From NCBI GenBank assembly GCA_027922465.2, contig BQMF02000037.1, positions 1,403,495 to 1,467,494 of the forward strand: a stretch of 64,000 bases of DNA. The letters are read 5' to 3'. Position 1 is the first letter of the stretch. Every line of letters starts with the position of its first letter. The position numbers and the translations under genes are program-made. Origin of the DNA: Turritopsis dohrnii. Lineage: Eukaryota > Cnidaria > Hydrozoa > Anthoathecata > Oceaniidae. The notes below the pieces were generated by a model. The model was given only the letters and a program-made list of their open reading frames with translations. It was not told the origin of the DNA and searched no databases. Positions 13,393 to 63,400 of this stretch are shown here, in pieces.

Positions 13393-13474
13393 CATTTTTG
13401 AAGAAAATATAATAGAAATATCAATATCATATCATAGAAAAAAAACAGCAAAGATTTGAAGAGGGTGTAAAGGC

Positions 13475-13560: not shown

Positions 13561-13634
13561 TCGAATTTTCCGTTTGTATGACTTTCGTTCAACATGCGAA
13601 ATATAAAGACATTTCATTCATTCGTATTTTAAAA

Positions 13635-16149: not shown

Positions 16150-16190
<41 letters not shown>

Positions 16191-18875: not shown

Positions 18876-19834
18876 AACGTGTTACTCCAAAACGTGATCG
18901 TGTTTGTTGTACATTGAAGAAATCACAGAAATAAAAGGAAACGCTCTATGTCTGCAATCTAAAATAGGGCGTTCGCATTGGGCGTAAAGCACTTTAAAAT
19001 GAAAGTCCAACGAAGTAAGTAATGGTGCATTACAGATAAAACGATGTTGGATTGCTAATTAAAAGCAAAATCACGTTCTCTTTGATGATGCGCGTTTTTT
19101 TGGGGGGTTTTTTTGGGGTTTTTTTTTGGGTTTTTTTTGGGTTTTTTTTATAAACAACCAAATTTAGATCTTAGTAACGTTACTTAAAAAAGTCATCGTG
19201 TTTTAATAGCAGTGTTGCATGCTTAATTTGTTGCTGAGAATTAATCGAAATTATATATGTCCCACCTTAGAAACCATTGTGTACATTTAAGTTGTTAAAT
19301 CAAAGTATAAATTATAAAGTTTCGAAATAAATGAAGCAAATGCGATGTCGTCAAATTCAAACACGGAATTTATTAATGTATCTAAGTATAAAGTCTGGGA
19401 CATTCAAATCGTACTGCATCCCACTAACAACCTATGGTAACAATCTTAAGAAATGAGCTGTAGCAATGCTAGTGCTGCAACATTTCAACATTTCATGTTG
19501 CTAATTTATAAAAGAACCTGGTAGTACTGTTCCTTAACTTTTAGAGAACTATATTTACTAGTATTGCTTATAAACTTATTGCTTCCTAAAAATACTTGAA
19601 TTCGAGCTAGAAGTACATAGAGAAGCTCTCCAAAGGAGGAAGGTGTTTTATCAAGTTACGTGCAAAATAGAAAGTTGTGTCATTTTGTTCAAGACACCAT
19701 TATTAGCCATCGTCTGTTCCTATACTGTTAATAGAATTAAAAAGAAAATCGTCGCTCTTTAAAACTTAGCAGATGCAGATATATTGTGGCTGATTAAAAA
19801 GGACGATTATAATTTTCATGCTTTATAATGAGTT
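18876..19834. other. Upstream region of GPCR with inverted Harbinger-intergenic copy
   Basis: A poly-T/GGGTTTTTTT low-complexity tract sits at 19098-19150. Bases 19190-19560 match 8815-9090 in inverse orientation, including GCAACAAATTAAGCA and AACATTTCATGTTGCTAATTTAT. This is a relic of a second Harbinger-type element lacking genes. No further genes are seen. Confidence 0.45.
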
Positions 19835-19903
19835 TTGTTCAAACAACGTAAAGTATTAAAATCAAATCGTCTGTTAAGATTTCATTTATTTGTTTCGATT
19901 AAG

Positions 19904-20869
19904 ATGGCAAACAAGATGGAACTAGCGAACGTTACTTGGAGTAATAAAATAACGTATTTTTCAAGATTATCTGAACTGACGGATTCTCAACGTTTGTATA
20001 TTACGATACAAAACATTATGATTTCCATATTAACTGTATCGTTAAATACCTTGGTTGCCATCGGCTTACAACAAACAAAACAAACACAGAAGAAGATTTC
20101 GTTGAAGCTGTTTTTCATGATGTCTGTTTGTGACATTGGTACTGGTGTGTTAGTTAATCCATTGCTGGCAGTTATTCACGGATATTACTACCAGAAAGAA
20201 TATTCTAAGCTTCATCTGGCTGTAGATTGTATCCAGTACTTCACCCCTCATGCATCTCTCCTTATTCTCTGTTTGATTTTTTTCGATCGTTACGCTCGCA
20301 TACGGTTCGCGCACAAGTACAAATTGACAATGACGAAACGCAAGATCTGCAGAGCAATCTGGATAATTTTCGCAACAACGTCATTTGGTACGGCATTGGT
20401 TTGTATAAGAAGCCTATCAGGTTTTTACTACCAACTTAGTGTTTTAATTATTGTGATCGACACTTGTATTTTCTCGCTAATGATTCTTTTCAACATCATG
20501 ATTATCGTTGCCATGCAACTTCATCAACGAAGACAAACGTTGAACCATCGTAAAGTATCGTCCGTTGAACGAAAAATTACGAAACTCACGCAACTCACAT
20601 TCGTGTTACTATGCATCTTCTATCTACCGTACATCTTAACAATCTTTGCGACGTTAGCATTACTACCGAAACAGCCGCAGATACTTACGTTTTTGCGATA
20701 CTTTGCGAGTAGTTTCACCTTCTGTAATGCCGCTGCAAACGCCGCCCTGTTGTTTAGTATGAACAAAGGACTATGGTTATGGTTGTTGCGCAGAAAAGCG
20801 AAACAGGAAGATTTAAAAGTTTATTTCAAAAACTCAGAGACATCAAATGACCAAGGCATAGAACTGTAG
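19904..20869 (+). CDS. Class A (rhodopsin-like) G protein-coupled receptor, single exon
   Basis: I choose the ATG at 19904 (MANKMELANVTW), which gives 321 residues; upstream codons lack an ATG and read as basic leader. Seven hydrophobic segments are visible. TM1 is about QNIMISILTVSL. TM2 holds the conserved Asp in SVCDIGTG. TM3 ends in the DRY motif (FFDRYARIRF). TM4 is IWIIFATTSFG. TM5 is VIDTCIFSLMILFN. TM6 has CIFYLPYIL with the Pro kink. TM7 is FASSFTFCNAAANAALLF. An N-glycosylation site (NVT) lies in the short N-terminus, and the tail is short and basic. TM7 has no NPxxY. Intronless, as is common for such receptors in cnidarians. Ligand unknown. Confidence 0.85.
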   Translation: MANKMELANVTWSNKITYFSRLSELTDSQRLYITIQNIMISILTVSLNTLVAIGLQQTKQTQKKISLKLFFMMSVCDIGTGVLVNPLLAVIHGYYYQKEYSKLHLAVDCIQYFTPHASLLILCLIFFDRYARIRFAHKYKLTMTKRKICRAIWIIFATTSFGTALVCIRSLSGFYYQLSVLIIVIDTCIFSLMILFNIMIIVAMQLHQRRQTLNHRKVSSVERKITKLTQLTFVLLCIFYLPYILTIFATLALLPKQPQILTFLRYFASSFTFCNAAANAALLFSMNKGLWLWLLRRKAKQEDLKVYFKNSETSNDQGIEL

Positions 20870-21325: not shown

Positions 21326-22393
21326 CTATTTTTGACGTTTGTATATCTTATGGACTAGAAAAATAAATAAATCCTTGGGGAAATGTTCCGAATGAGAGTT
21401 AATGAATTCACAAATATTCTTGTAGCTGTCTTCTTCGTACTCTTTGTACACAGTCCGCAAGTCAAGTTTGTTATACAAGTCCTTTATGACGCGAACTGAC
21501 TTTTCGTCATCTTTCCCGTAATTCGCTTTCAGTATTTCCAAATCGGACGGATCGCACCGTTCCAGAGCCTTAACCACCAACCAGGAGCATTTCCTGTCCT
21601 CAATATCGCGACCCACTTTACCCATTACTTCTGGGTCACCGTAACAGTCCAGGTAGTCGTCCTGCACTTGAAAGAACTCTCCTAACTTCATCAGAACTGC
21701 CTCAGCCTCCCTAAATATGTTTGCATCTGTTATTTCGGCAACATGCATGCCAAGTAACACCGGCAAATAAAACGAATAGTACGCCGTCTTATATTTGACG
21801 ATCGATTTGTATTTTTCCATGGTGAATTTCTCCAAGGAGAACTCTTCAGTGGGCGGATCTGATGCAAGCATGTCGAGCTCCTGACCCATTGCCGTCAAGT
21901 AAATGATGCTATGGAATGCTTTGTACAACTGGAAAATGTACGATGTCTCGCTAAAATGGCTATCGACCAAGCGGAAAATACATTGTTCCATCAAGTAGGT
22001 GTCATTGATCGCAACTAAACCGCACTGTTTATACCAGCACGGTTTTCCGCGTCGCAATTCTGAGCGATCCATAATATCGTCAGCAACCAGAAAAACGGCT
22101 TGAAGTATTTCCACGCACCAGCCTAAACAAATAGCTTTGTGGATATCATCTTTGGATGGGCTGCCCTTCCGTAGAAAGTCAACGGTACCAACGACCATCA
22201 TGCCTCTGGACTTCTTGCCGTCAAATGTGTTGTAATCCAATGCTTTTCGTAACCAGCCAGCAGCTTGGCCCAGTTCAGGATCCCTCTCATCCTTTTCCAC
22301 CAATTCATTCACCAGGTTTTGAAAGGCATTGTCAAACTCCTTCTTATAATTTAGAATTTTATCATTGAACTCAAACAGTGCTTTGCTACCCAT
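21326..22393 (-). CDS. FDPS: Farnesyl diphosphate synthase-like prenyltransferase, intronless
   Basis: 355 residues in one uninterrupted frame, near the length of animal cytosolic FPPS, starting MGSKALFEF. It would condense IPP with DMAPP/GPP in the mevalonate-sterol branch. Visible motifs: NTFDGKKSRG (55-64, GGKxNRG position altered but Lys and Arg kept), first Asp-rich motif DDIMD (105-109) with RRGKPCWY after it, GQELDML (170-176), YKSIVKYKTAYYSFYLP (195-211), second Asp-rich motif DDYLD (245-249), GKVGRDIEDRKCSW and the C-terminal KIYKRQK. The residues just before DDIMD read V100-F101, where standard FPPS has Phe-Phe. Animal FPPS genes are usually multi-exon, so this may be a retrocopy or intron-free lineage. 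A 5' fragment of a paralogue lies at 13285-13392. Product specificity is uncertain. Confidence 0.9.
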   Translation of the reverse strand: MGSKALFEFNDKILNYKKEFDNAFQNLVNELVEKDERDPELGQAAGWLRKALDYNTFDGKKSRGMMVVGTVDFLRKGSPSKDDIHKAICLGWCVEILQAVFLVADDIMDRSELRRGKPCWYKQCGLVAINDTYLMEQCIFRLVDSHFSETSYIFQLYKAFHSIIYLTAMGQELDMLASDPPTEEFSLEKFTMEKYKSIVKYKTAYYSFYLPVLLGMHVAEITDANIFREAEAVLMKLGEFFQVQDDYLDCYGDPEVMGKVGRDIEDRKCSWLVVKALERCDPSDLEILKANYGKDDEKSVRVIKDLYNKLDLRTVYKEYEEDSYKNICEFINSHSEHFPKDLFIFLVHKIYKRQK

Positions 22394-24993
22394 TATCTAA
22401 ACACGAAAGTAGTCAGTTAAGTAGAAGTGAATCCAGCAACTGCAACAAAACAAATGCTTTCCTCAATTTTCCAAATCACAAACGATACTTCAATGTAGGA
22501 AGCACTAGTAACAAACGAGAATCAGATTTTTAACGAGAAAGCATGATATAAATAAGTTCAAGTCTAATAAGTTCTAGTCTGTGAAAAAACTGTACTATAT
22601 AAATGAAAAGATCTCTATAAAAAAAACCTAAGATAAAGAATTTTACATTGGAGAGTTACATTTGAATTAAAAATTCTGTTGGACGGAATATGATACTTTC
22701 AATCTGATTTATAATAAGTGGAAGTTGTTATGGACTGCTAGTATTTTTTATCCAATAGACCGTCAATGAAATTCCGAAAAGAAAATGATTGCAAAACACT
22801 ATGAAAACTTTAGAAGGAGTATTGTATTTAAAAATTTGGAATGTACCAGTTATAATCTTCGTCATGAATTGAGTGAATTTTTATTTTCATGTGTTTGCAA
22901 CACTATTTCAAACATTATTACGAATATTTATTACAGGATGGTTCCTCAGTCATAGGGATCAGTCACAAATGAGATTTTTGACCCCTCCTCAACATGCGTC
23001 AACTTTGCCCCTCCCCTTGAGTTTATGTCATCTTCTGGAAAGAGACCCTAATTTTTCTAAGAAAATGAAAAAAGAAATCACAAATTTTAAAGAAACAAAG
23101 CAAAGAGAAGAAACCAATTTTTATAAATTGAACTTTGTTGAAGTCATAGCTGGCTAATGTTTCATAACTCTGGCACAGTAACACTATCCATATATAAATC
23201 AATCTGGAAATCCAATTACAAATTGTTTCTTATCTGAGAATAGTCTTTGGTCACTTTGTTTGGTCTTCAGATAAAATCTCAATAATGGCAATTATATATA
23301 TTTCGTGACTTTCTCTCAACTCCTGCCGCCTGTATAATTTTATTTTATTTTTATTCAACAATAACTTGTGTTGATCTGAGGATACAGAAAAGATGAAAGA
23401 TTTAAGGCCAATCATATTGGAAACCAATGTGGACATCTGAAGTATTACTGGGTTTACATTACAAACCATAAAACATTGTATAGTTGTACAGGGTGTTTCA
23501 AAAAAGTGGAAACAAGAAATATTCCTGCAGCTTTTAAAGTACGTATATATAATCAATTTTATTCTTTATAAATTTTATATCAATGGATCAATTTACAAAA
23601 ACACAGACAGTTATATACATAACAAAGCCACTGTTTTGCAGGCTTGAATACATTTTACATAAGCAACTACTTTAATTGAGAGTCTTATTGTCTTTATAGG
23701 GCCTTTCCTCTTGAAACTCAAACAAGAAACGCCATGCATTTTAACAAATTGCGTAAAAGTTTTATTTTATAATTTCACAATTATGTTAATTTTGTTTGGA
23801 AGATTTAGTTGTCAAATTTCCTTTATTAAGCCACAGACAAATAAAAAATTCTTGATCAATTTAGAATGATGACATCATTTAGGAACACCTCCAGGGAAAA
23901 AAAAGCGTGTATCACAGATCAAAAGTCAAATGAAAAATTGGTTAATCTGTTAATCAAGTTCATCTGCAAATATCGAGATATACAAAAATAATCAAAGTAC
24001 AAGGTGATAACAATCTCAATGATTTATCACACCTCAGGAATTATGAAATCACTTAAAGTTAATAAAACTGAAGACTAATTCAAATATAAAGCGTCTTCTG
24101 AAATACGTTGATGAAGATTTTCACCAAATCACTAAAATTTGAAAAAAATTGTGTTCCCCTCCAGAGATAATAAAAGAAGATCTAAGAATTACAAATTTAA
24201 GAATTACAAGTGGATTTTTATAACCATGCACTTCCAAGATATAGGTCTACATTGTTACATACACGCTTTTTATATAAGAATAATTTTATAAGAACACAAG
24301 CCTCAGATGTGGCAAAAAAATAAGAGCAAAATAAGAACAATCTGAACTCAAGTCATTGTTCCAAAATTAAGAACAGCCTGAGCCTGAATTCTCTCACTGA
24401 TAAACGGTTTAGAAGTTTGGGTTTTTTTTCACTTTTTTTCGCTTTCAATAATGTACGAATGGATCATTACCGAACAGCAACCATGGTTTTTACCAGTTGT
24501 TTTTTAAAAAGATTATAAATCTATTGTTTTCTAATCAGTAATTTACTGATAAATTTATCAGAAATTATCAGTTGTTATAATTTTCCCTCAAACTGTCACA
24601 TTTATCAATCAAGTGATGCAGCAGACAAAGACATTCTTGATATTCCAGCTGAGGAGGAAGTTGAGCTGAGCTGCTGTACCTATCATGAGCTTAAAAGGCT
24701 TTCTTACAACCCACACATGTGAAACCTTTTGTGAGCCTTAAAGATCTCAGACATTTTTTCCAAAAAAAATAAAACTTGTCCCTTTCGCTCTGCTCACAAA
24801 ATATTGAGAAATTCAGTTTAGAAAAGAATTATCTTTTTCATCTGCAAACTTTTGTACGTTCGAATGACACTGTTTTGATTTCATGTGAAGTTATGCACGA
24901 AGCTAAAACTTTTTGGACACACAGCGACAAACGCTTTGCATTTCAAACACCTTTTTGGGTATATATCACGATTTGAATAAACTGATGAATGTA
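22394..24993. other. Intergenic; G/C-rich MITE relic and dispersed repeats, no confident gene
   Basis: Bases about 22945-23045 are, on the minus strand, a relic of the GTTGACG/GGGGAGGGG family seen at 57900-58380 (shared TTTGACCCC, GCGTCAACTTTG, CACAAATGA). Bases 24270-24400 duplicate 11575-11700 inversely. Near 24618-24712 an open stretch (ILDIPAEEEVELSCC..) follows an acceptor-like ATGCAG and ends in TGA. It could be a terminal exon but is unrecognised. Confidence 0.4.
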
Positions 24994-25080: not shown

Positions 25081-25764
25081 CACAATATCAAATACATGCA
25101 TGGATTTGTCAAAGGTTTGGTCATTTTCGTCAATTCAACTGAATTTTCCTGACTGATGTGTGCCGTTAAACTAATGAATAATAAGGGGTATCTCAGAAAG
25201 ACTTATCCGCAACTATCAGTGTCTATTTCTCAACAAACATTTGTCTTCATTCAGTATATACAATATATAGCTATACAATATAAAATTTTCAAGACAAAAG
25301 GATTATTCTTCAGAAAGTTGAAGAAAAACACACAGATTTGCATCATAAATTTCTTAAAAATCAATTAAACTTTAACATCTTTACACAATCAGACGAGTAC
25401 AAACATAATTATTGTCATTAGAAACAAATAACCGCGCAAGTTTGTAAACATCAGAAACAACAGCAGGGAGAGTAGAATGGGGGTGAGATTTTTGAAAATC
25501 AAAGAAAAACACTTGAAATATATATACCTGAATACCTAGGACTCTTTGATAGTAATTTACATATATGGGCGTATCAATTTATACCAGAAAATGGAGAATT
25601 TTGTCGAATAGACAGAAACATTTGGCGAATCAAAGTAAGAGAACATGTTCGTATTTCTTTATTCCGCATTATCAGCTTATTTTGTATCTTGATGGTAAAA
25701 GATTTTCTTTACTACTTTTGTCTCAAAGGTCTGGACAACTGAGTCTACCTTAGAAATATGCAAA
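25081..25764. other. 5' flank of ULK3-like gene, nothing recognised
   Basis: AT-rich sequence with short open frames (25156-25368, 25565-25753) lacking domains. It presumably contains the promoter or 5' UTR of the kinase gene, but no specific motif can be assigned. Confidence 0.35.
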
Positions 25765-27162
25765 ATGGCGGGGAAGTCGTGTGCTGCTTCCAGACTTTCG
25801 TTTTCACCTCCTCACATGAAAGATTTTATTTTGACTGAAAAACTGGGCCAAGGAACGTATGCTACTGTGTATAAGGGATACAGGAAAGGAAACAATAGAG
25901 AAATTGTAGCCGTAAAATGCATAAAGAGATCATCACTTAGTAAAAACTCATCTGAAAATTTGCTTCGTGAAATAGAAATATTGAAATCATTGGACCATGA
26001 ACACATTGTGAAACTTAAAGATTTTCAATGGGATGATAACAATGTATTTCTTATTTTGGAATATTGTAGTGGGGGTGATTTATCCACGTTTATTAAGAAA
26101 TTCAAACGGTTGCCTGAAAGTATTGCTCAAAAATTTCTTCGACAGCTGGCACTGGCATTACGTTACATTCGAGAAAAGAATATATCCCATATGGATTTGA
26201 AGCCTCAGAACCTACTTTTGGAATCTAAAGATAATCTAACATTAAAAGTCGGTGACTTTGGATTTGCACAGTATCTTTTAGGCAAAGAGGGCCATGAAAA
26301 TCTTCGTGGTTCACCATTATACATGGCTGTAGAAATGTTTAGTTCTGATTCCTATGATGCATCAGTAGATTTATGGTCAACAGGTGTTATATTATTTGAA
26401 ACACTTTTTGGTTATGCCCCTTTTGCTTCCAAGACGTTTGAAGAGCTAGAATTGAAGATACTATCCAACGAGGAAATACAAATACCCGATCACACAGAAA
26501 TATCACTGCAGTGTAGAGAACTATTAAAAGGTCTTTTACAAAGAGACCCAAGTAAAAGAATTTCTTTTGATGACTTTTTTAATCACTCTTTCGTTGACTT
26601 AGAACATGCTCCAAGCCAAGAATGTTTACCAAAAGCTATTAGTGTAGTAACCGAAGCTGTGCATTTTGACCAGGCAAAAGACTACAAAAGAGCTATTGAT
26701 TTCTATTGTAAAGCTTTGTCATACTTTTTACCTGCAATAGACTTTGAAAAGAACATTGAGAAGAAGTCTGCCATGCGATTAAAAGCAGAGCAGTATATCA
26801 ACAGGGCAGAACAACTCAAAACTTACCAAAAGCAAGTGCAGAGAAAGAAACTGGAAAGAAGTCTTTCAACAAAAACCTGTGCTGAAAGGTTACCTGGTTT
26901 TAAGGAAGCTTTGCATCATGCAGAAATGGGAGAGCAGTATGATGATGCCAGGCAATATGAAAAAGCTCTAAAAGAGTATTATTCTGGAATTGATCTTTGT
27001 ATGTCCATTTTATCAAAAATTGGCAGCAACAATGAGACCCATCGAATCGTTAAAGATAGAGCAGAGCATATGATTGCAAGAGCTGAAGAGTTAACTGCTT
27101 ATAAAGAACTTCTGAAGAAAGAAAAAGACATCACTAATGTCACGGCATGTTGCATACAATAA
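25765..27162 (+). CDS. ULK3: ULK3-like serine/threonine kinase with two MIT domains, intronless
   Basis: 465 residues; start MAGKSCAASRLSF. The kinase domain spans about 21-272, with glycine loop GQGTYATV (28-35), VAVK Lys51, catalytic HMDLKPQN (Asp144; human ULK3 has HLDLKPQN as I recall), DFG 164-166, GSPLYMAVEM at the activation-segment end, and DLWSTGVILFE. Two MIT-type three-helix repeats follow (about 278-352, ACISVV-like AISVVTEAVHFDQAKDY; and about 376-452, ALHHAEMGEQYDDARQYEKA). They end in A+AEEL signatures that bind ESCRT-III tails. In vertebrates ULK3 acts in the abscission checkpoint, autophagy and Hedgehog signalling. Two oddities: no introns in a family that is normally multi-exon, and Val in place of Pro in the APE motif. 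No poly(A) relic follows the stop. Confidence 0.9.
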   Translation: MAGKSCAASRLSFSPPHMKDFILTEKLGQGTYATVYKGYRKGNNREIVAVKCIKRSSLSKNSSENLLREIEILKSLDHEHIVKLKDFQWDDNNVFLILEYCSGGDLSTFIKKFKRLPESIAQKFLRQLALALRYIREKNISHMDLKPQNLLLESKDNLTLKVGDFGFAQYLLGKEGHENLRGSPLYMAVEMFSSDSYDASVDLWSTGVILFETLFGYAPFASKTFEELELKILSNEEIQIPDHTEISLQCRELLKGLLQRDPSKRISFDDFFNHSFVDLEHAPSQECLPKAISVVTEAVHFDQAKDYKRAIDFYCKALSYFLPAIDFEKNIEKKSAMRLKAEQYINRAEQLKTYQKQVQRKKLERSLSTKTCAERLPGFKEALHHAEMGEQYDDARQYEKALKEYYSGIDLCMSILSKIGSNNETHRIVKDRAEHMIARAEELTAYKELLKKEKDITNVTACCIQ

Positions 27163-44612: not shown

Positions 44613-44889
44613 CAGAACGTATTGGAAATAGTTACATATGGCAATGACATCATCGATCATGAAGAGATTCAAATGCAGAAGTATCATCGACACAGCTGTA
44701 TCAATAGCTTATCATTTGGGACTTTAGACTGCTCATGCGTGACTTTCAGAATCAAAGCAAATCGCATTCTCTTTTTAATTTTTGCTCTCCCCTGCTTTTG
44801 GTTTTTTAGGGATCCTCATACTCGACCTAAAACAATATTGATTAGAAATATAAAGAATAATAAAGAAATATAAAGAATAATAAAGAAAT

Positions 44890-45070
44890 ATAAAGAATAA
44901 TAACGAAATTGATGGACTCCTTTTGTACACATTTCAGACTCCATTTTGACACTAACGGACTCCATTGTTACATTCGGACTCCTTTTTAACAATATGTTCG
45001 GACTCCTTTTGTACTCTAGGACTCCTTTCGTACACGATCGGACTCCATTCGTACACGATCGGACTCCTTT
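44890..45070. repeat. CGGACTCC-type short repeat array upstream of the SET-recombinase gene
   Basis: About nine GGACTCC motifs are spaced 15-25 bp apart, several followed by TTTNGTACAC. The left part (GAAATTGATGGACTCC..CACATTTCAGACTCC...TTGACACTAACGGACTCC, conserved in pieces) also occurs at about 62540-62610. The array ends about 140 bp before the start codon at 45208. It may contribute to the promoter or simply be a repeat. Confidence 0.55.
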
Positions 45071-45207: not shown

Positions 45208-47367
45208 ATGGAAAAAAAAGTTCAGCAGACTGTTGTGAGTTGTCAGCATATAACTCTTTTTGATAAACACTTGCTAGCTATGTTTATTATATAATTTCTT
45301 TTTTTGTTTTTTTATTAAACTCGCATCTTAGAATCAAGAAGATACAGTTATTAAATCGTTGATCAACAGTGACCCATCATTTTTGATAAAAAAATATATT
45401 GATAGTCATATAGGTATGTATATATATGTTTGATCAGCCAGTCAAATTTATGTGGTAGTAGTGTAGAAGTAATAGTAGTTTATTTTCACCAACAAAGATA
45501 AACAGTCAGGGACAACCGTAAATAGAGGGATGCCGTAATTACGGGATGTGAATTGTACATACTGTAATTATGCGATGACCATAACGGCGCGCATACTGTG
45601 ATTACACGAACACAAAAAATCAGCCCAATTTGATGTGACAATGGCAGATTTAAAAGAACTTGTGGTTGTATAAATCATGATCAGTGGTCTTATGAAGAGC
45701 TATTTGAAACTCGTAACATTAAGAAATCCAGAGTACTCGCCATTTTAATTTACCACTGCTAGAAAATTGCTGATTTTAGAAAAAGTTGGCGCGGAAAGGT
45801 CAAACATCACCGCGTTAAAATGTCGAGAAATTCCCTAAGATTTAAGATAAAAAAAGTTCCAAGTCTTGCAGGGGAAGTGTGTTCACCGTAGATTCAAAAC
45901 AAACAAAATTCCTTTAATTACGGGATGTATCCCGCAATTACGGGATCCCTCTTGTCCCTACTGATAAATTTACAAGAAAAAGAAGCTTTGGATATTAATT
46001 ACTACAAAATTTATAATTTACAATCATATTTATAAAATAACATAGTATTGTTATTTTAAAGTAAGGAAGTTGTAAACTTGTCTATGTTAGTAGGGGAACG
46101 AACACCTACGAGGACTAGTTGAGAGAGGAGGAGGCCACCCTTAAATATTAGGACTTATAAGCTACTTGTATGTATAAAGTTACATTGATGTTCAAACACA
46201 GCCAGAAATCTTTTTTATGCGATCAAGTGAGAGTATAGTGCTGTTTTTTCACTCAACTCAGATGTTTGGATGTGACAAGCCAGTAAATGTCTAGCTAATT
46301 AAAATAGACAGCAATGAACCATTTCCCCACTATGAACTTTTTAAGAAATTTAGTTATTTAGTTATAAAACTACACTTTGAATGTCAAGATTTCGAGATTA
46401 TTCACTTCTATTCTTTTATATTTTCTATAAACACCTGATGCTGATGCTGTTTCTAATAAAATATATTACATATAATGAACAATTAAAAACACATCTCTTC
46501 ACAAATTTTTCGATATCTTACATAATCTTTATCAAGTTAAAAATGATACAAACGTTTATTTAGAGAAAAAATTAAAAATTAAAATTAACAAGAGGTTAGG
46601 TTTGAATAAAGATCGTGATCAATTAAGTTAAGAATGTGCGTGCAGTTAAAATGATATAAATATATATATAATATAATAGATGAGTTCTTATGTTACCAGT
46701 GAAAGCTCTGTTTATAATCTAAACAAACTTCACAAAAATGGATTTTGAGTGCTAATGAGTATTAGTTTTTATTATTTTATTTGTCTTAAAAATGCCTCCT
46801 GATAACCATTTTAACCGACAAAATCTTGAAGTGTATAGGGAGCATCTAATTGCCAGTGAAGATGCATGTCTATACAGCATTATGTTGAAACTCATAGCTA
46901 AAAACACCGATGCTTATAAACATTATATCACTTAGAAAATCATCAATATAACCATTAGTAGATTTGTGATAGCTACCAAAACTCTTTTGTCCACAGCAAG
47001 TTAGCCTTAGAAGAGATATATATGTTACTTGATTTTCAAACTGAAAACTATTTGCTTTAGCTTGAGGAGCACTACTCGTGATTATTTGATTTAATTATAA
47101 AGCATGTTAATCTTAGTCAATAAGAAAACAGGGTCATAAGCAAACTGTTATCAGAGTTTTCAGAGCTATGAAATCAGTTAGTGTGATATAGGATAGTACG
47201 ATCAATCAATCGATCAATTTCAATTTATTTGCCTAAGATTACGTGACTGACAAATTACAAAATTTCAAAAGAATAAGAGGCCAGGAGACTACCCCATATA
47301 GTCGAGACTAATCTAAGGAGGTAGCCACCTGAGTATATATGTAGAATACAACAACAAAAGTTTCGAA

Positions 47368-47398
<31 letters not shown>

Positions 47399-50300
47399 TA
47401 AATAAAAGAAAAGAAAAATAAAATTAAAATAATGCCAGTACGATGATGAAGAAGTGAGGTACTTTCCTCGAGTAGCCAAGAAAAAGATAGATATATCTCA
47501 AGGGGAATACAACGTTGAATAACAACATTGACAAGATAAATGGATTTGGCTGAGACTGTTCAATGTAATAAGAAAAATATAAAGGTGAGCCTTAAAAGTT
47601 ATCACTATGTATTGATTACAGATAATCTCATTCTACTGCAAACTGCAGCAAGGATGATGAGCGTTAACAACTTCTGGTTAATCAAAAAGAGGACTAACTT
47701 TGCCAAAATTATATACCTGTAAAATAAATAATGTTTATTCAATTGTTGTATTTAATTGTTGCTTAAAAATGACGGTTATATGATGAACATGAAAAAATTA
47801 ATCTGAATACTGCCTGAAGGATAGTATTTTTCTTCTCTTATTTTTATAGATTGGTTCATCGCCAACCTATAAACAAGTGCGATGTAGCTCAGCTTTCTCA
47901 ATAAGACAAAATATTCAGAAAATTCCTTTGACACTGAAAAGTTACTATTTGATTTAAAAATGATGTAAAAACCCTTTCATAGGCTATGGTGTTTTTACTG
48001 CCACATCCATCAAGAAAGGACAGCCATTGTTGGAGATGAGGGGAACATTACTAAAAAACAAGGAAGCGCAGCAGCAGGCTTTAAAGTATCGGAAAAGAAA
48101 AATTAACTGCTCTATGTTTGATGTAATATTTAAAGGAGAAAAGTTAAGGTAGGATATTGTAATTACAGAATATAAGACTTGCTATTGTGCACAAAGGTAA
48201 TAATAAACCTTTTTACTTTTACTACTCTCTATTTTAAATTCAAGTAACAGAGAAGTTATAATAAACCCATCTAATAAATTTGTATTATGAAATGTGATGT
48301 ATTATGCATATTTTTCTGTAAGAAAGAATGTTAACCAATGGAACTGATCTGATTTACCTTTTATATGGGGAGTTGTGTTCTAATAGTTTTTCATTATACT
48401 TCATAAATATGTACACCCCAGTATATCTTATTTTTAGTATAGATACAACTTTGTCAACAAGTCTTGGAAGATTTGTCAATGACTCTCCACCAAAATTGGC
48501 CAACTGTCTTCTCAAGAAATTTGTGGTGGGAAACATTCCCCATTTATTTTTGGTGGCCATTGTGGATATACTTCCTGGCTGTGAATTGCGATACAGCTAT
48601 ATATCCAATGATTTATGGTGGCGGTCAGATGTATGTAATACCATTTTTATATATATAATGTTATAATATCAGATCGATATTATCGTGATATGTTTTATTG
48701 TAATTTTAGGTTAGGTATTGTGCTCCATGTTTCAAACCAGTGGTATGCAATCCAATCTTTTATTTTTTATCCTAATTTGACAAAAAAAATCAGATAGATT
48801 TGTTTGATTAGTTTTATGTTTCTTTGAAGATCTTTTGTTAGCATACTTTTTCATTTAGGAAGTGGAGATAGAGTTTGTTTCTGAGAGTGATGTACAGGTA
48901 AGAACTTTCTTGTTGTTTTATATTAATGGTTAATGGTCAAGTTCTTATGTTTACCTTATCATTTGGACTTTATGGGGTCTATTTTGTTTTATTTTTTCTT
49001 AGCAAATATGTAGGAATTCTTTTTCTTGCCCATCTTCATTAATTTTATTTTCATGTTAGGTTATTGGGATTGAGAAAACAAACTCGGAACCTAATTGTAG
49101 AGTATGTATATACTTATGTACAGATTGTGTTTGTTTAGTAGGGATTCTTCTCTGCAGGAATATATCCAACAATGAACATTGCATGTTTATGGAAATAGTC
49201 AATGGTTATGAAAGTGAAATACATGTCAAAATTATCCTTGTAGGTTGCTCTAAAAAGATTAATGCCCAATTCTGGTAAGCACAAACTGATAAAAAGAAGT
49301 TTTCTATTCCAACAACAATTCATGGTGATATGTTTAAGGGTGTTGTTTCATTCCTTTGCAGCTAAAGTTACAGCACTGAAAGAGCCATTCTTCAAAATTG
49401 AAGACAAAGAATGGTTAGCTGTTTATTTTATATTTAAATTATGATGTATTTCAGATAAACATTTAAATTTATTCATTCAGTTTAAGTTGTCCACTTTTCT
49501 ATGAGGGAAAATTTCCTTCAATTTCGACCAGTTCTGGGGAGTCTCAGTATCCCGAAAGAATAATTCGAAATGACAATGACTATGGCTACTGTGAATGCTG
49601 TGACACAAAGTTTGAAGACTTAAATGAGGTATTTGTTATGAAAGACTTACCCATTACAGTTTTGAACATGACCGCAGATGTACTAAATTATATTCTACCA
49701 AAAATTACTCATTTCAGTTCCCCTTCTTCGAAAACCACTTATCGAAAAACTTCCCAAAAGTTCTTACCACAGTCTCTTGCCTTAAATTAGTTTTTTTGTT
49801 TTAGCATTTGACTGGAACTGAGCATAGAAATTATGCAACCAACCCACTGAATTATCAAGTCATCGATGACCTCAGGTCAAAAACTAATGCAAACTCTTCA
49901 ATGTAGGTAGTTGGTTCTCTTTCTTATGAATCTTTAGTTTACTTTAGACTTTGAAATATGGAATTATCTGGAGTATTAAACATTTTCTTTCATGTCGAAA
50001 TCTATAGTCACTAAAGCTACTATTACCATGTCCTTTCCCTTTTAGTTTTCCGATGCTATATGCTACCATGGTGAGATTAATGTTATTTTAGTCCTAATTT
50101 AGTCTTAAGTCTTCTTAAATGTCTTCCTTTTTTCCTGCCCTGCATATCTTTTACATTAAAAAGGTTATCTTACAGGGTGAAGATAATGTTGCTTGCCCTA
50201 GCTGGAAAAAATACAAGTAAATATTGGATGTATTCTCAGGCTTGTTTATTAACTATATCTTCTGAAACCCCAATAAAATAAAAACTTTATGCATTTTCAG

Positions 50301-53300
50301 AAATGTGCAAGATGTTCCCATTGAGACCATCAAAGAAATGATGGATAATCTAAACAGTCAAATTTTATGTATATTTACTGGGAAGGTATAGTCCAGCATT
50401 GAGTAAATTCAATTCCAGATTGTTAACCTTAGTTCCTAAAAACTATTTATATTATTTTCTTTATTAGACGTATTGTGAACGACATGAGCAATACAAGGCA
50501 GGTGGTAAACAGAAAGGTAACTCACTTAAATCTTCACTATATAGTAAAAAAGTGTTTCGTGTAAATTGAAGCTTAATTCGGCATAGGGAGGTTAAGAGTT
50601 GTTGACGTATGCTCCCCTTATACAGAAGAACAGGAAAGTACAATCATGGATAAAATCCTGCAAACTTTTGGTCCCGCTGAACGGAGGAAGGTAGAATAGT
50701 TTATTTTTACTTACAGAAATTTCAATAATTTGCTTCGTGCTTTACGCTCGAAACAGCTCTTATAGTATCAGACTTCTTTTTCTCGTTTGGTGGGTCGGAC
50801 TCTTTTTTTACATTCAGAAGATAAGGTATTCCTCGGAAGCAAATTGATATTTTGTCTACGTTGAACTGTTTCTTTTTAGTATTTTGACTACGTTTTCAAA
50901 GTATTATTTCCGGAAAGTATGGTGTTATTGTATTGCTTATATGCCAATGTTAGCCATTCCGAGGTACCATTTGGTTTATTTGCAATTCTTTTGAAACCCA
51001 TTATTATTTAAAATTATTAATACTTTTTGTTACTTTTTGTTACAGGCCAGCAGATACTTACAGCAGATATGGCAAAGACCTGAGAGTGAAGACGAAGAAG
51101 GTAAAGCTTTCACTTTCAGTATTCCCGATTGGTAGATTGCCCAGCGAATTTCAGTCTTATATTATTTATAGTTGCATCTGAAGAAGCATTGGAAGCAGAA
51201 CTAAAGGAAATATTAAATATTAAAGACGTTGAATGGAAAGATGGAGAGAAAGAACAATTTATGGCAGATAACGAGGAACGGAACGTTGAGGTTGCTATAG
51301 TAGATGACGTGGAACGGAACAATGAGGTTGCTATGGTAGTTGGTGTGGAACAGAACGATGAACTTCCTATAGTAGATTACGCGGTACGGAACGTTGAGGT
51401 TGCTATAGTAGATGACGTGGAGCGGAACAATGAGGTTGCTATGGTAGTTGGTGTGGAACAGAACGATGAACTTCCTATAGTAGATTACGCGGTACGGAAC
51501 GTTGAGGTTGCTATAGTAGATGACGTGGAGCGGAACAATGAGGTTGCTATGGTAGTTGGTGTGGAACAGAACGATGAACTTCCTATAGTAGATTACGCGG
51601 TACGGAACGTTGAGGTTGCTATAGTAGATGACGTGGAGCGGAACAATGAGGTTGCTATGGTAGTTGGTGTGGAACAGAACGATGAACTTCCTATACTAGA
51701 TTACGCGGTACGGAACGTTGAGGTTGCTATAGTAGATGACGTGGAACGGAACAATGAGGTTGCTATGGTAATTGGTGTGGAACAGAACAATGAACTTCCT
51801 GTAGTAGATTACGCGGTACGGAACGTTGAGGTTGCTATAGTAGATGACGTGGAACGGAACAATGAGGTTGCTATGGTAGTTGGTGTGGAACAGAACGATG
51901 AACTTCCTATAGTAGATTACGCGGTACGGAACGTTGAGGTTGCTATAGTAGATGACGTGGAGCGGAACAATGAGGTTGCTATGGTAGTTGGTGTGGAACA
52001 GAACGATGAACTTCCTATACTAGATTACGCGGTACGGAACGTTGAGGTTGCTATAGTAGATGACGTGGAACGGAACAATGAGGTTGCTATGGTAATTGGT
52101 GTGGAACAGAACAATGAACTTCCTGTAGTAGATTACGCGGTACGGAACGTTGAGGTTGCTATAGTAGATGACGTGGAACGGAACAATGAGGTTGTTAAGG
52201 CAGTTGGCGTGGAGCAGAATGATGAACTGGCAGGTAACGTGGAACGGAACGTTGAGGTTGGTATGGTAGTTAATAAGGATCGGAATGATAAGCTTGCTTT
52301 GATAGATAACGCGGAATGGAATGCTGACGTTGCTATGGTATATGACACAGAAAGGAACGCCCATGTGGAGTTCAATTCAAATGTAAGTGTCACTATTATT
52401 GTATAGAACTTTCCGTAAAGGTAACGGATCTAGTGGGGATTGAACCCACGACCTCTCGTTTGCGGGGCGATTGCTCTACCGACTGCGCTATCGATCCGAT
52501 GACATTACATTACATCTTTATTATTATATTTGCAATTCCGTATAACAAAGGGATACATTAGCTAGTTGTTATTTTTTTCTCGTTAATTTCATTCCAGACC
52601 TTTCCAGATAAGAACCTGACCATTCATAAAGAGCAATACGTTAACCGAAAACCGTAAGTTTTCAATGTGGAGATTACTTATCTGTGTAAACCTTTTTTGT
52701 GTATTTTCATTTGTTTATCCAACATTTTAGCCCTTCCCGTCACAGCAGACAGTGTCCTGTGTCTGTCTGTAAGCAGATTGTCCAAAATTTGCCAAGGCAT
52801 TTGATGCTAAAACATAAATGGACGAAGGCAAGCTGTGGTGCTGTTATGGGACAGTTCTCCTTAAGAAAACAATCGCAACCAAAGGTTAAAACGCCAAAAA
52901 AGGGAAATCAAAAGGACTATCACTTTGCACGGATTTGCCCTGTCAAAGGCTGTTACAAGGTATTGAAAAGATTGCCAAAGCATCTTCTTGTACATCATAA
53001 GCTACCTCGGAATGCGGACTATTACAAACTACTAAAAGAAGCACAAATGTTTAATACCAGCATTCTTCCAGAGACAATTACAAAATCTCCTCGATCGTTA
53101 TTCTCGAATGCCAAAAAACATTCTTCAACTACAGTAAAGATACCCACTACACCTAATTCATCAGAGCCAGTTACGAATTCTCCGCGATTGTTATTCTCAG
53201 AGGCCAATAAAGATTCTTCAACTACAAGAAAGATACCCACTACACCTAATTCATCAGAGCCAGTTACGAATTCTCCGCGATTGTTATTCTCAGAGGCCAA

Positions 53301-55394
53301 TAAAGATTCTTCAACTACAAGAAACATACCCACTACACCTAATTCATCAGAGCCAGTTACGAATTCTCTGCGATTGTTGTTCTCGAAAGCCAATAAAGAT
53401 TCATCAACTACAAGAAAGATACCCACTACACCTACTTCATCACTCAACAAATATTATGAAAGTGACGATGAGGATCTGTTTTCGGAAGATGAGGATTCAA
53501 AAGACGCAGAATTGCCACGGGATGTGAAAGTTGTTTTGAATGGCTTCGTAAGATACCTACAAAGCCCAGATGGTGGCAACAGAGTATCTTGCGTTCAACT
53601 CAGTGATGATGTAAAACGCATATATTTGGTTTTATGCAAAAACCAACCTTTTTCAATGTTTTTCGATATCAAGCATTTCCGTGATAACTATTTAATGGAA
53701 TATTGCAAATTTCGCAATAGTTTACCGGGAACCATAAAAAAGTACCTGTTATCTGTTGATATCTTCTGCGAATATCTCATTACCGAAAAAGTTGGGATCA
53801 GGGATGTGTCTTCTGCCCAAATACTAGATTTGAAGTTAAAACTTAACGGGTGGAAGAAAAGCTATCAAAAAATGGATCGGAAACGGAAATGGGAGAGAGA
53901 TATTGACGATTTTTCCATGTTGGTCACCCCGGAACAAGTCCAAGCATATGAAAAAAGTGATCATGCTGTTAAAGCGAAAGATTTATTTGCGATACTTAAA
54001 AGGAGTAATGTCAATGTTACGCAAACACAGTATTGTCAGATGAGAGACCATTTGTTTTCGGCGATCCATTTTGCTAATGGTCATCGATCAGGAGTATCGG
54101 CAAACGTTTTGGTTTCGGAGTTTCATGCCGCAAGAAAAGTAGATGGTGGTTTATGAAATTTTCGTTAAAAACCATAAGACCTCACACGCATATGGTCCTG
54201 CCGCGATAACTTTAAATGAGGAGGAATATGGCTGGCTCAACATATTTGTCACGAAAGTTCGACCTCAGATAAACTCGAACAGTCCAAACGTGTTCTTGTC
54301 TTGGACTGGATCTTCTATGGATCCGGGTCAAATCAGTCTAAGAATTCACCAACTTTGGGTCAAGGGTGGAATATTTGAGAAGACGCCTGTGAAGAACTTG
54401 ACCTGCAATATTATAAGAAAATCAACAAGCACAGGCATACGAGATAAAGGTCTAGGCTTTAATCAGGAAGTTGCAGACTTAATGGGACACAGTTTGGAGA
54501 CAGCAGAGTCGCATTATTTCATTAGAAGAAGCAACAAACAGCAGCTAAAGGTGCCGAAATCGTTCGGAAATACTTTCGGACTGTTCCCGAACCTCCAACT
54601 GATTTTGTAGTCACCAAGACTTGACTACCTCATCCCCAAAGCATTGTGGACCATTAGTGACATCACTCAACTGAAGGGAATATTTTCCGAAGAAATAGAA
54701 AGGAATCATGTGTCTATGGCAGATGTTAGAGAGAAATTTAATGAATGCTCAAAGTTTTTCGGAACTAGTGAGAAACAGATATATGATAAAGTTAGAAGTT
54801 TGATGCGTTACTCTCCTAAGTGCAAAGTAAGTCTTATCCTAGAATAGAGGTTTATAAGTCCCAGTTTATTTACCTGCTTAAGAGTATTGGTATCCCCAAA
54901 TTCTTCAAATGATCTTTTTCTCAATTTCGTTCGTTCAAATGGTTTTCAATGGTCTCACCTTTTTGTAAATGTTAATTTTTAGAGACAATTACCAACATCA
55001 CCAAGACCAGTGTCTAGCTGCACAGCTACTTTAGTAAGTATGATGAATTCTTTCCCTGATATTGTGATTCGCTTACTTGTTTTGACAATTCCATATTTTC
55101 AGTAATGCAGTGCATTGTTCTGTGCCATGAACAACATTCTGACTAATGATTCTTTCGTATTACTTTTCGTATTTGACCTTTTAGCAGAATTTTTGCCCTT
55201 CACCGGAAACAAGAAGAAGGCTTTTTTCCCGTAATGAGATAGAGATATTGAAGAAAAAGTGCAAGGCAATTATTGATGGTGGTCCGTTGAACGAACAAAG
55301 GATTCGCACTGCATTAGATGGAGACTTGTCCCAGTATAGCTTTTCGCAGTTAAGGACGAGATTAGATTATGAACGAAAATTGAAAAGGAAATAG
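45208..55394 (+). CDS. Chimeric SET - DBF4-type zinc finger - tyrosine recombinase gene, 23 exons
   Basis: Exons: 45208-45234, 45332-45413, 47983-48148, 48438-48630, 48710-48742, 48859-48897, 49060-49101, 49244-49274, 49362-49413, 49481-49628, 49805-49902, 50046-50070, 50176-50216, 50301-50385, 50468-50516, 50626-50690, 50880-50963, 51046-51100, 51172-52382, 52598-52653, 52731-54826, 54983-55033, 55185-55394. All introns are GT-AG and phases agree, giving about 1,645 residues. SET domain about 36-150 (IGYGVFTATSIKKGQPLLEM; LGRFVNDSPP; CELRYSY), resembling KMT5A. DBF4-type finger about 258-285 (C-x2-C-x9-H-x5-H). 12-residue repeats about 474-842. C2H2-like fingers near 868 and 929 (CPVSVC..LPRHL; CPVKGC..LPKHL). 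31-residue repeats about 977-1101. Tyrosine recombinase about 1121-1484: Arg in GHRSG (54085), NIIR in place of HxxR (54407), MGH (54488), Tyr in SHYF (54515). Three small frame changes fall near 54147, 54535 and 54615. Likely nuclear; Crypton-like origin inferred. Confidence 0.85.
45503..45962. mobile_element. 460-bp TIR element, 5-bp TSD, in intron 2 of the SET-recombinase gene
   Basis: Ends CAGTCAGGGACAA and the complement of CAGTAGGGACAA are inverted. ATAAA flanks both sides (45498-45502, 45963-45967). Subterminal GTAATTACGGGAT repeats are inverted too. CAG termini with a 5-bp TSD resemble the element at 1146-1310 in class but not in sequence. Confidence 0.7.
51279..52375 (+). repeat. Coding minisatellite: 12-residue repeats in exon 19
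   Basis: About thirty 36-bp units encode a 12-residue motif with E/D at 2, hydrophobics at 3, 5 and 6, and a closing RN or QN (VEVAIVDDVERN; NEVAMVVGVEQN; DELPIVDYAVRN). Three form a 108-bp unit repeated eight times almost identically. Units 3-5 and 6-8 share the same pattern of variants (IVDY, ILDY, VVDY), so a 324-bp trimer was duplicated recently. The last few units are diverged. Confidence 0.9.
52426..52497 (-). ncRNA. tRNA-like sequence (probable SINE head or pseudo-tRNA) in intron 19
   Basis: 72 bases with A box TAGCGCAGTCGGTAGAGC and B box GGTTCAATCCC. The T-stem GTGGG/CCCAC is perfect and the acceptor stem is GGATCGA/TAGATCC with one mismatch. The anticodon arm has only three of five pairs and C instead of T at position 33 (nominal anticodon CGC), so it is probably not a working tRNA. 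It lies antisense to the host gene. AT-rich repeats (ATTACATTACAT) sit upstream. Confidence 0.6.
53080..53450 (+). repeat. 93-bp coding tandem repeat in exon 21
   Basis: Four copies of a 31-residue, Ser/Thr/Pro-rich unit (SPRLLFSEANKDSS, TTRKIPTTPNSSEPVT) spaced 93 bp apart. They form a linker between the zinc fingers and the acidic stretch before the recombinase core. Likely disordered. Confidence 0.85.
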
Positions 55395-60445: not shown

Positions 60446-63400
60446 CAGTAAATTCTCTGAATTCTTCTTTATTAAGATCTAGGTGTTGCTCTTGGAGTTA
60501 GCCTTGCACTTTCACCTTTGTCACAGGTTTGTTGAATAATAGGCTTTAATTCTTCGAGTAAGTTGTTATATATCATATCAAGTTCTTGTTTCTTTTTTTG
60601 TAACTATACTGATTTTGCATCACTTTTCAAATTTGCTAATTTGGTCTTTTCAAATTTTCAAATTTGGTCAGTTTTTGCATTTTTGTTTTCCTAATGTATA
60701 TACCTATCTTTTGTAAACATTTTCCTATTTTAGGCAGTATCTATATAGGGGTCAGATCGGCCAAGGAGCCCGAATGTTTAGTCAGATTTTGCGTCTTCCT
60801 GTTCTTGATATTTATACCTAACTTTCAAAAAAATTTCAAGCCTGAGACTCGTGACATGAAAAAGAGTCTTTTTTCCTGTTCCGTTTTTGGTCTGTGGAAG
60901 CTGTAGGAACCCTGACCCCTTACAGACTGGCTGATCATTAATACTTACCATCAAACAAAGACACCTAAACTAGTTAAAATTCTGAGGAAAGTGACATGGA
61001 AAAATGTGACGAGAGCTCTTACACTAAAATGGAGATGTAGATACCGTAGATTAATACGTCACACAATTGTTGTTTTTTTCCGGATTTTTAAAGCATTCAA
61101 TTCATCTTATTAAAAAAGGAAAATAACTTTTCCACAAGTATCGTCACTTTTGAAAGCGTCGTTGTAAATTCGTTATAATAGTCATTCGACTATTTATGGT
61201 CGTCAAATTTACAGGGTTTTAAAAGTCATTTCAACTCGCGAAAGGTGGTCAAAAAGACTTGCTAAGGTCGTAGCTATGACTCAGGAAAGGATGTCGTGAG
61301 AGGCACTGTAAATTACTACCTTTATATCGTCAAATTTGACTCAGTTACATTCCTCAGTGTAACAATGGCGTCAACATGAATTTTGGTTACATTCATGGAA
61401 TCATTATATTGTTGAATAGAACTGTTAGGACATTCACTGCCACACCTCCTTCGGATGGATTTAATGAAAGGAGATCACGGAGATTCCGAATTATTTCACA
61501 ATCATCTCCGGTGGGGAAAAACTTGTCGTTTAGTAAAGTATCGAAGGAATTTGAAAACGATTGAAAATCTTCAATCATTCTGAGGAAATATGAAAACTTT
61601 GATTTAAATCCTTAAGTATATGCAATGAATGCTGCTTGAGGTTGAGTATCACTGATCTGGCATAAATTATTAAGCTGTTTAACCCAATCGTCAAAAATGT
61701 TAATACAGTACTCACACTGAAAATCTTCAGAACCTAACTGAAAGGCAGAAAACTACGCGGGTATTTAATTTCGCGATTTTTAAGTTTTCACATTTTATCT
61801 GAGTATTCAATTTCCCTAAATGGGAAGTAAAACGAGAAATAAGCAAAATATTAGAGCTTTTACCCTCGGAAAAAATTGCGAGTGTAAAATTTCGCGGTTA
61901 AAGATTTTGTTGGTATTTAATTTTTCGATTTTAAGGCATACAACCACCATGATGTCCTTTTCCTCTCGCTGTGATTTTAACTGATTTGCCAAATATTTTA
62001 CTGGTTTCTTTTACTGATTATTCTGACTCTAAGCCAACACTTGGATCATATCACATAATAAGCGTAACTTCCCCTAAACTTTCAAGTTTTTGATACCAAT
62101 TGAAGGATGGACGTAGCTTTCTAGCAGCACTAACATTGTTGGCTTACCACACTTGTTTAACAGTGAGCTAGAGTTCTTTAAATTGATCAATAATCGTTAT
62201 TTCGCCCAAAGAGTACCATGGCAAGGCAAAAGGGTTGCTGGTTTCTGATAAGTATTGATTGATTGCTGATATGGAACTCATGATTTCATTATTGTATATT
62301 CCTAACCCTGTTCAAGCAGTTGAATACCTTAATAGCGTCAATAAGTAACACGGTATCGATTTCATTATGCTGGAAAATCGCTTTAAGCGAGCGGATGTCT
62401 TATCCCAATTGCGTGAAAAGATTTTGATGAAAAAAATATACGCTGGACGGTAGGAATTTTTTTCAAGGACTCGCTAATGAGTTTTTGTCGTACGAGCATG
62501 AACTGATGAAAACACTCGTTGGAGAATTGCAAATTCCTGAATTGATGGACTCCCTTTTCACAAATTTCAGACTCCTTTTTGACACTAACGGACTCCATTG
62601 TAACAGTCGGGCTCCTTTTTTACTCAATTGGCTACATTTATTGTTGTAACGTGAGACAAAATTTTCTAAATTCTTTACAGTAGAGCCTCCATATCGGAAT
62701 CTAGCCTAAGTTTGATTTACTTCGTCATGGCTCTCATAGCAGCCGGTTGACCTAATCATTACAAGCAACTGATTTGCTAAACACAATAAATAAATGCAAA
62801 CAAGTCTGGCACATATGGGTTCGTTGAATGGATCTTCCAATATGAAGAAATGGAACATTACCCCGCTGACTCTTTTTTATGTGCATATATCTCAATGACT
62901 TGGTGTGAGAAAAGAACTCTTCCACTGCGGTCTATTCCGCCTATTCCGTCCAACTAACCGATTATTAAACTGACTTTCAAAGGCGTGAAGTGGCTGGCTG
63001 AAAGAAGAAGGTTTTTCTAAGGAATTCATGCAAAATTTCGTATGTTACACAAATCTACGTTTGCAAGAACATACTTAACACGGCAGCTGGGCCTAGGAAA
63101 TTTTGTTACGAGAATAATCATAAGGATTTCAAGCTGCCATTCATTATGACTGATGATGGACTCTTTCTTACAAAACAAATTGCAGACTTAAACCATCACA
63201 CTTAACTAGTCACCCACGTAAAAACATTTTGCGATTGAATTTGCTTGGGAAAAGACTTTTTTTATTGAGACGCGTTGATCAGATGATGAAGATCACGCTC
63301 GTTATTAACTTAGTAATGAACTTGTTTCTTACTCGTGTAATTTTGAAATATTTTCGATATTAGTGAATAGCAAAAGTATCATCTTGATTGCACCTAGGGC

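What the first reader, a model, noticed from the sequence alone, without database searches (positions are those of the whole stretch)
45208..55394. One spliced gene joins a histone-methyltransferase-like SET domain to a DNA recombinase
Twenty-three exons with GT-AG borders and matching phases link a KMT5A-like SET domain, a DBF4-type zinc finger, two repeat arrays, two C2H2-like fingers and a Crypton-like tyrosine recombinase. Fusing chromatin methylation with site-specific recombination in one polypeptide suggests either a mobile element that modifies chromatin at its own target, or a domesticated recombinase turned chromatin factor. I know of Crypton-derived host genes (Kojima and Jurka) but not of this architecture.
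Basis: partly seen in the sequence, partly recalled or inferred. Interest (0 to 1): 0.92.

Follow-up and report, generated by a model that had tools for sequence, protein, structure and literature searches.

The report
Jumping-gene recombinase fused to chromatin enzyme
A gene in a hydroid-like animal joins a histone-methylating domain and a piece of a DNA-replication activator to the cut-and-paste enzyme of a jumping gene, and its many relatives in the same genome suggest that a family of mobile elements has taken up host chromatin and replication parts.

Summary
The architecture is real, but the frame is not continuous. Nineteen exons with GT-AG borders and fitting phases encode a KMT5A-like SET domain, a DBF4-like segment (zinc finger plus a motif-M-like stretch) and a repeat array. 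They lead into two zinc fingers, a tyrosine recombinase (YR) and Myb-like ends. The frame changes three times in and just after the recombinase, so this copy, as assembled, cannot make it whole. I count 22 exons, not 23.

It is not a lone chimera. In the window's own genome 20 of 52 DBF-finger matches have a YR match within 10 kb downstream on the same strand, nine in one open frame of 1206-1394 aa. Of 20 fetched SET loci, 9 have a YR downstream on the same strand, in three divergent groups, one of them weakly supported. The closest named recombinase is from Hydractinia, where a 2023 paper reports up to 65 KMT5A-like genes, most with N-terminal SET, read as H4K20 methyltransferases.

Best reading: a decayed copy of a YR mobile-element superfamily carrying chromatin and replication modules. 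Element ends and mobility are unproven. Full SET-DBF-YR order was seen only here.

The parts
45208..45413 (+). Exons 1-2 (45208-45234, 45332-45413): N-terminus, start of the KMT5A-like region
   Evidence: GT-AG, phases fit; PDB alignment to SETD8 begins at residue 11, in exon 2
47983..48630 (+). Exons 3-4 (47983-48148, 48438-48630): SET domain; motif NDS where KMT5A has NHS
   Evidence: Pfam SET residues 37-146, E 1.5e-10; best SET matches in PDB are KMT5A/SETD8
48710..49274 (+). Exons 5-8 (48710-48742, 48859-48897, 49060-49101, 49244-49274): linker
   Evidence: splice borders and open frame only
49362..49902 (+). Exons 9-11 (49362-49413, 49481-49628, 49805-49902): DBF4-like segment: motif-M-like ALKEPFFKIED, then DBF zinc finger
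   Evidence: Pfam zf-DBF residues 256-297, across the exon 10/11 border, E 6.1e-16; DBF4 chain 4f99_B E 1.2e-10; alignment with P0021 and L030
50046..51100 (+). Exons 12-17 (50046-50070, 50176-50216, 50301-50385, 50468-50516, 50626-50690, 51046-51100): linker
   Evidence: splice borders and open frame; weak similarity to P0021 beyond the DBF finger
51172..52382 (+). Exon 18 with the 108-bp (36-codon) repeat array
52598..52653 (+). Exon 19
52731..54156 (+). Exon 20, first frame: two zinc fingers, 93-bp repeat array, N-terminal half of the tyrosine recombinase with the first catalytic Arg (GHRSG, 54079-54093), ending at a TGA
54143..54826 (+). Exon 20, further frames: recombinase C-terminal half (K 54170-54184, R-II 54404-54424, H 54482-54496, Y 54509-54523) and first Myb-like end; two more frame changes near 54535 and 54620
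   Evidence: tblastn of P0015; motif positions; frame of the middle piece
54983..55394 (+). Last exons 54983-55033 and 55188-55394 with the second Myb-like domain and stop
   Evidence: GT-AG; P0015 residues 637-690 match 55212-55373 at 63% identity

Best explanation
This is a decayed copy of a family of tyrosine-recombinase mobile elements of hydrozoan-like genomes whose protein also carries host-derived modules: a KMT5A-type SET domain and the DBF4 segment that, in host DBF4, contacts the kinase CDC7 (recalled). Shown: domain content, order and strand; a YR fold for the nearest relative; many relatives in the same genome with SET or DBF modules before a YR on the same strand; a broken recombinase in this copy. 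Inferred: zinc fingers and Myb-like ends bind the element's ends; the YR cuts and rejoins DNA through its tyrosine, probably through an excised circle as proposed for Cryptons; the SET and DBF modules act locally on chromatin and replication timing of the element or its target, helping integration or copy gain. This copy probably no longer recombines and at most makes a SET-DBF-finger protein with a truncated recombinase.
Against: No element ends, target sites, empty sites or circles were seen. Two DBF-YR copies (C28, C224) are colinear, with insertions, over the 22.9 kb compared, as haplotypes or segmental duplicates would be, so near-identity is not proof of transposition. Full SET-DBF-YR order was seen only in the window; other loci showed SET-YR or DBF-YR. 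The recombinase is frame-broken. No RNA evidence. 11 of 20 SET loci had no YR in the DNA fetched. The paper on Hydractinia found a single KMT5A gene in Nematostella, so the SET expansion is not general in cnidarians.
Confidence: 0.68

Rival explanations
1. Domesticated host gene: the recombinase part was retired and the SET-DBF-finger protein is kept as a chromatin or replication regulator that reads DNA through its fingers.
For: Exons 1-19 carry no frame break and their 18 introns have intact borders, while the recombinase has three frame changes. Crypton YRs have been domesticated several times (PMC3212892, abstract and sections 3, 5, 8, 17 read).
Against: Many intact YR relatives in the same genome. 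Of 37 columns invariant in the 13 other rows of the YR alignment the window agrees at 33; the misses are a start Met, one F to Y and two columns past the typed piece, so the breaks look recent. The orthologue test was not possible.
Confidence: 0.16
2. Two neighbouring transcription units: a SET-DBF gene followed by a separate finger-YR element; the reader's exon chain joins them by chance.
For: No transcript. SET loci without YR were seen (11 of 20). Two annotated relatives begin at the fingers (P0015, P0022).
Against: P0021 and nine own-genome copies hold DBF and YR in one frame. SET is followed by a YR in 9 of 20 fetched loci. P0003, P0006 and P0019 appear to start with intron-like residues before the fingers, as if upstream exons were missing (my reading). 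Splice phases fit across the whole linker.
Confidence: 0.14
3. The frame changes are assembly errors and the copy is an intact, possibly active element.
For: The YR pieces keep 33 of 37 otherwise invariant columns and the catalytic residues.
Against: Three changes in about 500 bp and none in the 19 exons before; several ORFs of 345-566 aa elsewhere in the window read without a break.
Confidence: 0.2
4. Chance co-location in a repeat-rich region.
For: The window holds several transposon-like ORFs (labels recalled).
Against: Neighbour counts far above uniform placement.
Confidence: 0.02

Closest known systems
Crypton YR transposons, animal group CryptonA (Kojima and Jurka 2011, PMC3212892; abstract and sections 3, 5, 8, 17 read)
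   Same: DNA element whose only visible transposition enzyme is a tyrosine recombinase; reported from a cnidarian (Nematostella)
   Different: SET and DBF modules, many introns and C-terminal Myb-like domains; the paper says animal Cryptons have no C-terminal domain; no DUF3504 hit listed; ends not determined here
The up to 65 KMT5A-like genes of Hydractinia and 61 of sea urchin (PMC10368294, section 9 and passages read)
   Same: KMT5A-like SET, mostly N-terminal; longer genes share both the SET and the C-terminal end (E < 3e-43) between Hydractinia and sea urchin; the nearest named YR relative P0015 is from Hydractinia
   Different: The paper reads them as H4K20 methyltransferases; the words recombinase and integrase do not occur in its main text. 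That their conserved ends are YRs is my inference; I did not see the supplementary table
KMT5A/SETD8 (PR-Set7)
   Same: Closest solved SET domains; both tyrosines of the ELRYSY (KMT5A ELLYDY) stretch kept
   Different: SET is N-terminal, and NDS replaces NHS in the window and in 12 of 15 readable SET-family loci (YR-linked or not); a separate KMT5A-like locus with NHS exists (L025)
DBF4, activator of the kinase CDC7
   Same: DBF zinc finger with C, C, H, H ligands and a motif-M-like PF.KIED before it
   Different: No other DBF4 domain was listed by Pfam; the YRP...P.INY half of motif M is clear in L030, partly in P0021, and weak in the window
SETMAR (SET domain fused to a mariner transposase; recalled)
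   Same: SET domain fused to a DNA-transposon enzyme
   Different: A different SET class, a DDE-type transposase and a single primate gene; here a YR and a multi-copy family

Membership tests
Tyrosine recombinase | YR fold | tested here: met
   P0015 model, 23-row alignment, pLDDT 73: the first 42 Foldseek rows and first 35 VIA-align rows are YRs by title; tested on the relative (62% identical in the core), not on the window copy
Tyrosine recombinase | Catalytic R, K, R, H, Y | tested here: met
   Motifs present in the window's pieces, in two frames; the (H/K)xxR box reads NIIR. Assignment by motif, not by superposition
Tyrosine recombinase | One open frame for the catalytic domain | tested here: not met
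   Frame changes in this copy; open in relatives such as the 12 matches with 688-aa frames
Crypton transposon | Short direct repeats at the ends, circle intermediate | not tested
Crypton transposon | CryptonA-type YR (DUF3504 relationship) | tested here: inconclusive
   No DUF3504 family listed in Pfam scans; no Crypton sequence was at hand for a tree
KMT5A methyltransferase | KMT5A-like SET domain | tested here: met
KMT5A methyltransferase | NHS motif of the SET active site | tested here: not met
   GRFVNDS in the window; NDS in 12 of 15 readable SET-family loci, NAS in 1, NHS in 2
KMT5A methyltransferase | H4K20 monomethylation | not testable with these tools
   needs an enzyme assay
DBF4 | Motif C zinc finger | tested here: met
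   Pfam 6.1e-16
DBF4 | Motif M | tested here: inconclusive
   First half clear, second half weak in the window; clearer in L030 and P0021
DBF4 | CDC7 binding | not testable with these tools
   needs a binding assay
Mobile element | Dispersed copies with defined ends | tested here: inconclusive
   Copies on many contigs; ends not found; C28 and C224 may be haplotypes

The most novel reading that the evidence does not exclude
A self-licensing transposon. A tyrosine recombinase moves DNA conservatively, so copy gain needs replication. This family carries parts of two replication-origin factors: a KMT5A-like SET (tethering PR-Set7 to a locus promotes pre-RC assembly, per the review PMC10968542, passages) and a DBF4 segment that could recruit CDC7, the kinase that fires origins. 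The element would license and fire replication on itself or on its excised circle, then reintegrate. The 'expanded H4K20 methyltransferases' of Hydractinia and sea urchin would then be element-encoded.
Probability: 0.13. Interest if true: 0.95.

Novelty: new variant of a known kind. Interest (0 to 1): 0.82.

Why it matters
If the family is mobile, it is a kind of DNA transposon that carries a histone-methyltransferase-like domain and a replication-kinase activator segment next to its recombinase, so it could act on chromatin and replication rather than only evade silencing. It also gives a direct test of a published claim: that Hydractinia and sea urchin expanded H4K20 methyltransferases for embryonic chromatin control. 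If those genes end in a tyrosine recombinase, many may be transposons switched on at genome activation. And it makes the question of how YR transposons gain copies testable.

Tried and rejected
Led nowhere: viral contigs and genome-contig scans with the YR alignment and phage records, no relatives. Protein search with the SET-DBF region found nothing at E <= 0.001 among 2771 candidates; not even a KMT5A or DBF4 was returned, so absence there means little. ARAGORN found no tRNA although Rfam did. The AlphaFold model of type-B YR C-terminal halves (4 rows) had pLDDT 44 and was not searched; type B rests on one profile alignment (probability 91.5%, E 1.3e-6). L028 and the L009 and L017 pieces gave no Phage_integrase hit in Pfam.

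Considered and rejected: chance exon chain; that near-identical DBF-YR copies prove transposition (C28 and C224 are colinear throughout; L030 and L032 match most of the same stretch); that NDS in the SET domain is decay of this copy (it recurs in divergent loci), though L028 and L023 keep NHS and L027 has NAS.

SET-locus sampling: the 20 loci are the best 27 of the 136 SET matches less seven that I dropped by judgement: C143, C95, C244, C58, C121 (thought host-like or uninformative) and C472, C67 (scores as for chosen C399, C362). L019 and L020 look like copies of one locus. The sample is not random. No YR was found in 11 of 20: L010, L011, L012, L015, L016, L019, L020, L022, L023, L025, L026 (L020 ends within a finger exon like those of type B; L012, L015, L016 gave no family SET hit at the thresholds). 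L024's SET is degenerate and was left out of the motif count; L025 is KMT5A-like and was counted apart. By coordinates, only four YR loci among the 82 rows have a SET row upstream within 10 kb on the same strand (C261, C6, C285, C50); both lists are partial (150 of 352 SET and 64 of 553 YR candidates scored). Neighbour counts between lists were made by eye. Chance figures assume uniform placement and count only scored or candidate type-A YRs.

Papers: 10 searches. Crypton + SET domain + tyrosine recombinase gave 2 papers; four SET/transposon phrases or KMT5A-like gave 1; two DBF-finger terms with transposable element gave 0; N-lysine methyltransferase KMT5A + cnidarian + transposon gave 0; four of DBF4, tyrosine recombinase, transposable element, SET domain, domestication gave 4, none with DBF4. 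I saw no description of this architecture in the listings or in the passages read; I did not read all listed papers, and most subscription papers and Repbase are not held.
Full report
What was checked. The window lies in a 435.9-Mb genome of 891 contigs (C37:1403495-1467494). The animal is not named; the closest named relative of the recombinase is a Hydractinia symbiolongicarpus protein (P0015, 52% identity), sister to the window among 28 rows of a YR tree (100/99 support, 62% identity in the core), so a hydrozoan is likely.

Gene structure. Exons 1-19 (45208-52653) have GT-AG borders at 18 of 18 introns and fitting phases; the three later introns are GT-AG as well. Excluding the repeat exon, 429 codons are open, expected by chance at about 5e-16; the 144 codons of exons 5-7 and 12-17, with little or no homology support, at 7e-6. 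SET homology runs through exons 2-4 and the DBF finger across the exon 10/11 border, so those splices are supported by homology. Exon 20 starts at 52731 and reads to a TGA ending at 54156. P0015 then matches in three stretches: 52777-54147, 54155-54718 in another frame and, after two introns, 55212-55373. Inside the second stretch, 54532-54621 reads in the first frame as a piece that matches P0015 (56% over 16 residues, E 3e-4) and P0004. So there are three frame changes (near 54150, 54535 and 54620), in and just after the recombinase core, and 22 exons rather than 23.

Own genome. zf-DBF: 52 matches. YR by P0015: 82 rows, 553 candidates of which 64 were scored. By coordinates 20 of 52 DBF matches have a YR match within 10 kb downstream on the same strand; nine have equal open-frame lengths, hence one frame (C28, C184, C224, C492, C529, C266, C176, C386, C114; 1206-1394 aa). 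Four were fetched (L029-L032): 97-99% identical to L029 over more than 5.7 kb, each with DBF segment, fingers, YR and Myb-like end in one ORF; no SET was found in the fetched flanks. C28 and C224 stay colinear at 92-99%, with insertions, across the 22.9 kb compared, so they may be haplotypes or a duplicated segment. SET: 136 matches. I fetched 20 SET loci with about 9.3 kb downstream. Nine have a YR on the same strand: L014 and L028 (profile probability 100% against the window's YR group), L018, L024 and L027 (99.5%; Pfam Phage_integrase 9e-5 and 2e-4, below cut-off, for L018 and L027), and L009, L013, L017 and L021 (91.5%, weakest). Eleven have none in the DNA at hand. NDS recurs in 12 of the 15 family loci whose motif could be read (L009, L010, L011, L013, L014, L017, L018, L019, L020, L021, L022, L026); L027 has NAS; L023 and L028 have NHS; the KMT5A-like locus L025, counted apart, has NHS. 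The recurrence in divergent copies argues that NDS is an inherited variant, not decay.

DBF appears in two separate YR subclades, the window/P0015 group and the P0021/L030 group (tree; six forks are drawn open for weak support), so the DBF-YR link is either old or was gained twice.

Literature. Kojima and Jurka 2011 (PMC3212892, abstract and sections 3, 5, 8, 17 read) describe Cryptons; animal ones have no C-terminal domain, and copy numbers are very low in most hosts. The Hydractinia embryo paper (PMC10368294, section 9 and passages) reports as many as 65 KMT5A-like genes; 13 early ones are said to be highly divergent and not adjacent, and most of the genes to have N-terminal SET. It finds 24 in Hydra, 61 in sea urchin, one in Nematostella, and shared SET and C-terminal ends between longer Hydractinia and sea urchin genes (C-terminal E < 3e-43). 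It does not mention recombinase or integrase in the main text. I infer that many belong to this family; I could not open its supplementary table.

Mechanism. Committed reading: fingers and Myb-like ends bind element DNA; the YR excises and inserts it; SET and DBF modules act locally on H4 tails or through CDC7. Only the parts are shown; every functional step is inferred from known families. A review (PMC10968542, passages) states that tethering PR-Set7 promotes pre-RC assembly and that DBF4-dependent kinase acts on MCM, which makes the pairing of these two modules suggestive. Counter-evidence: the DBF and SET modules were seen together only in the window, and the NDS change may have removed methylation.

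Verdict. What remains open is mobility, transcription and enzyme activity.

Noticed in passing
window 52425-52497 (-): tRNA match (Rfam 45.2 bits) inside intron 18, antisense to the gene; not found by ARAGORN.
   Followed up: no
window 44844-45070 and 62540-62623: Tandem repeats just upstream of the gene; a stretch (44907-44990) recurs at 89% identity at 62540-62623.
   Followed up: no
window 13416-16679: An ORF that looks like a HARBI1-type nuclease (recalled) appears interrupted by a reverse-transcriptase-like ORF (recalled label).
   Followed up: no
window 21326-22396 (-), 25699-27162, 19832-20869: Long ORFs that resemble a prenyl-diphosphate synthase, a ULK3-like kinase and a GPCR (recalled labels), apparently without introns, beside a 22-exon gene.
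   Followed up: no
L009, L013, L017, L021: A very divergent recombinase-like family (in L009 and L017 GKRGRQVPILL ... GH ... YYRL) downstream of SET domains; profile match to the YR set 91.5%; fold model too poor to judge.
   Followed up: partly
G000 C261, C44, C29, C67, C94, C318, C429, C14, C542, C233, C226, C477: Twelve YR matches with near-equal scores and a 688-aa open frame; C67, C429, C261 and C318 lie within 12 kb of a contig start, as at assembly breaks in repeats.
   Followed up: partly
L025 (C115): KMT5A-like SET with NHS and YDYGDRSKASIESHPWL, probably the host KMT5A.
   Followed up: no
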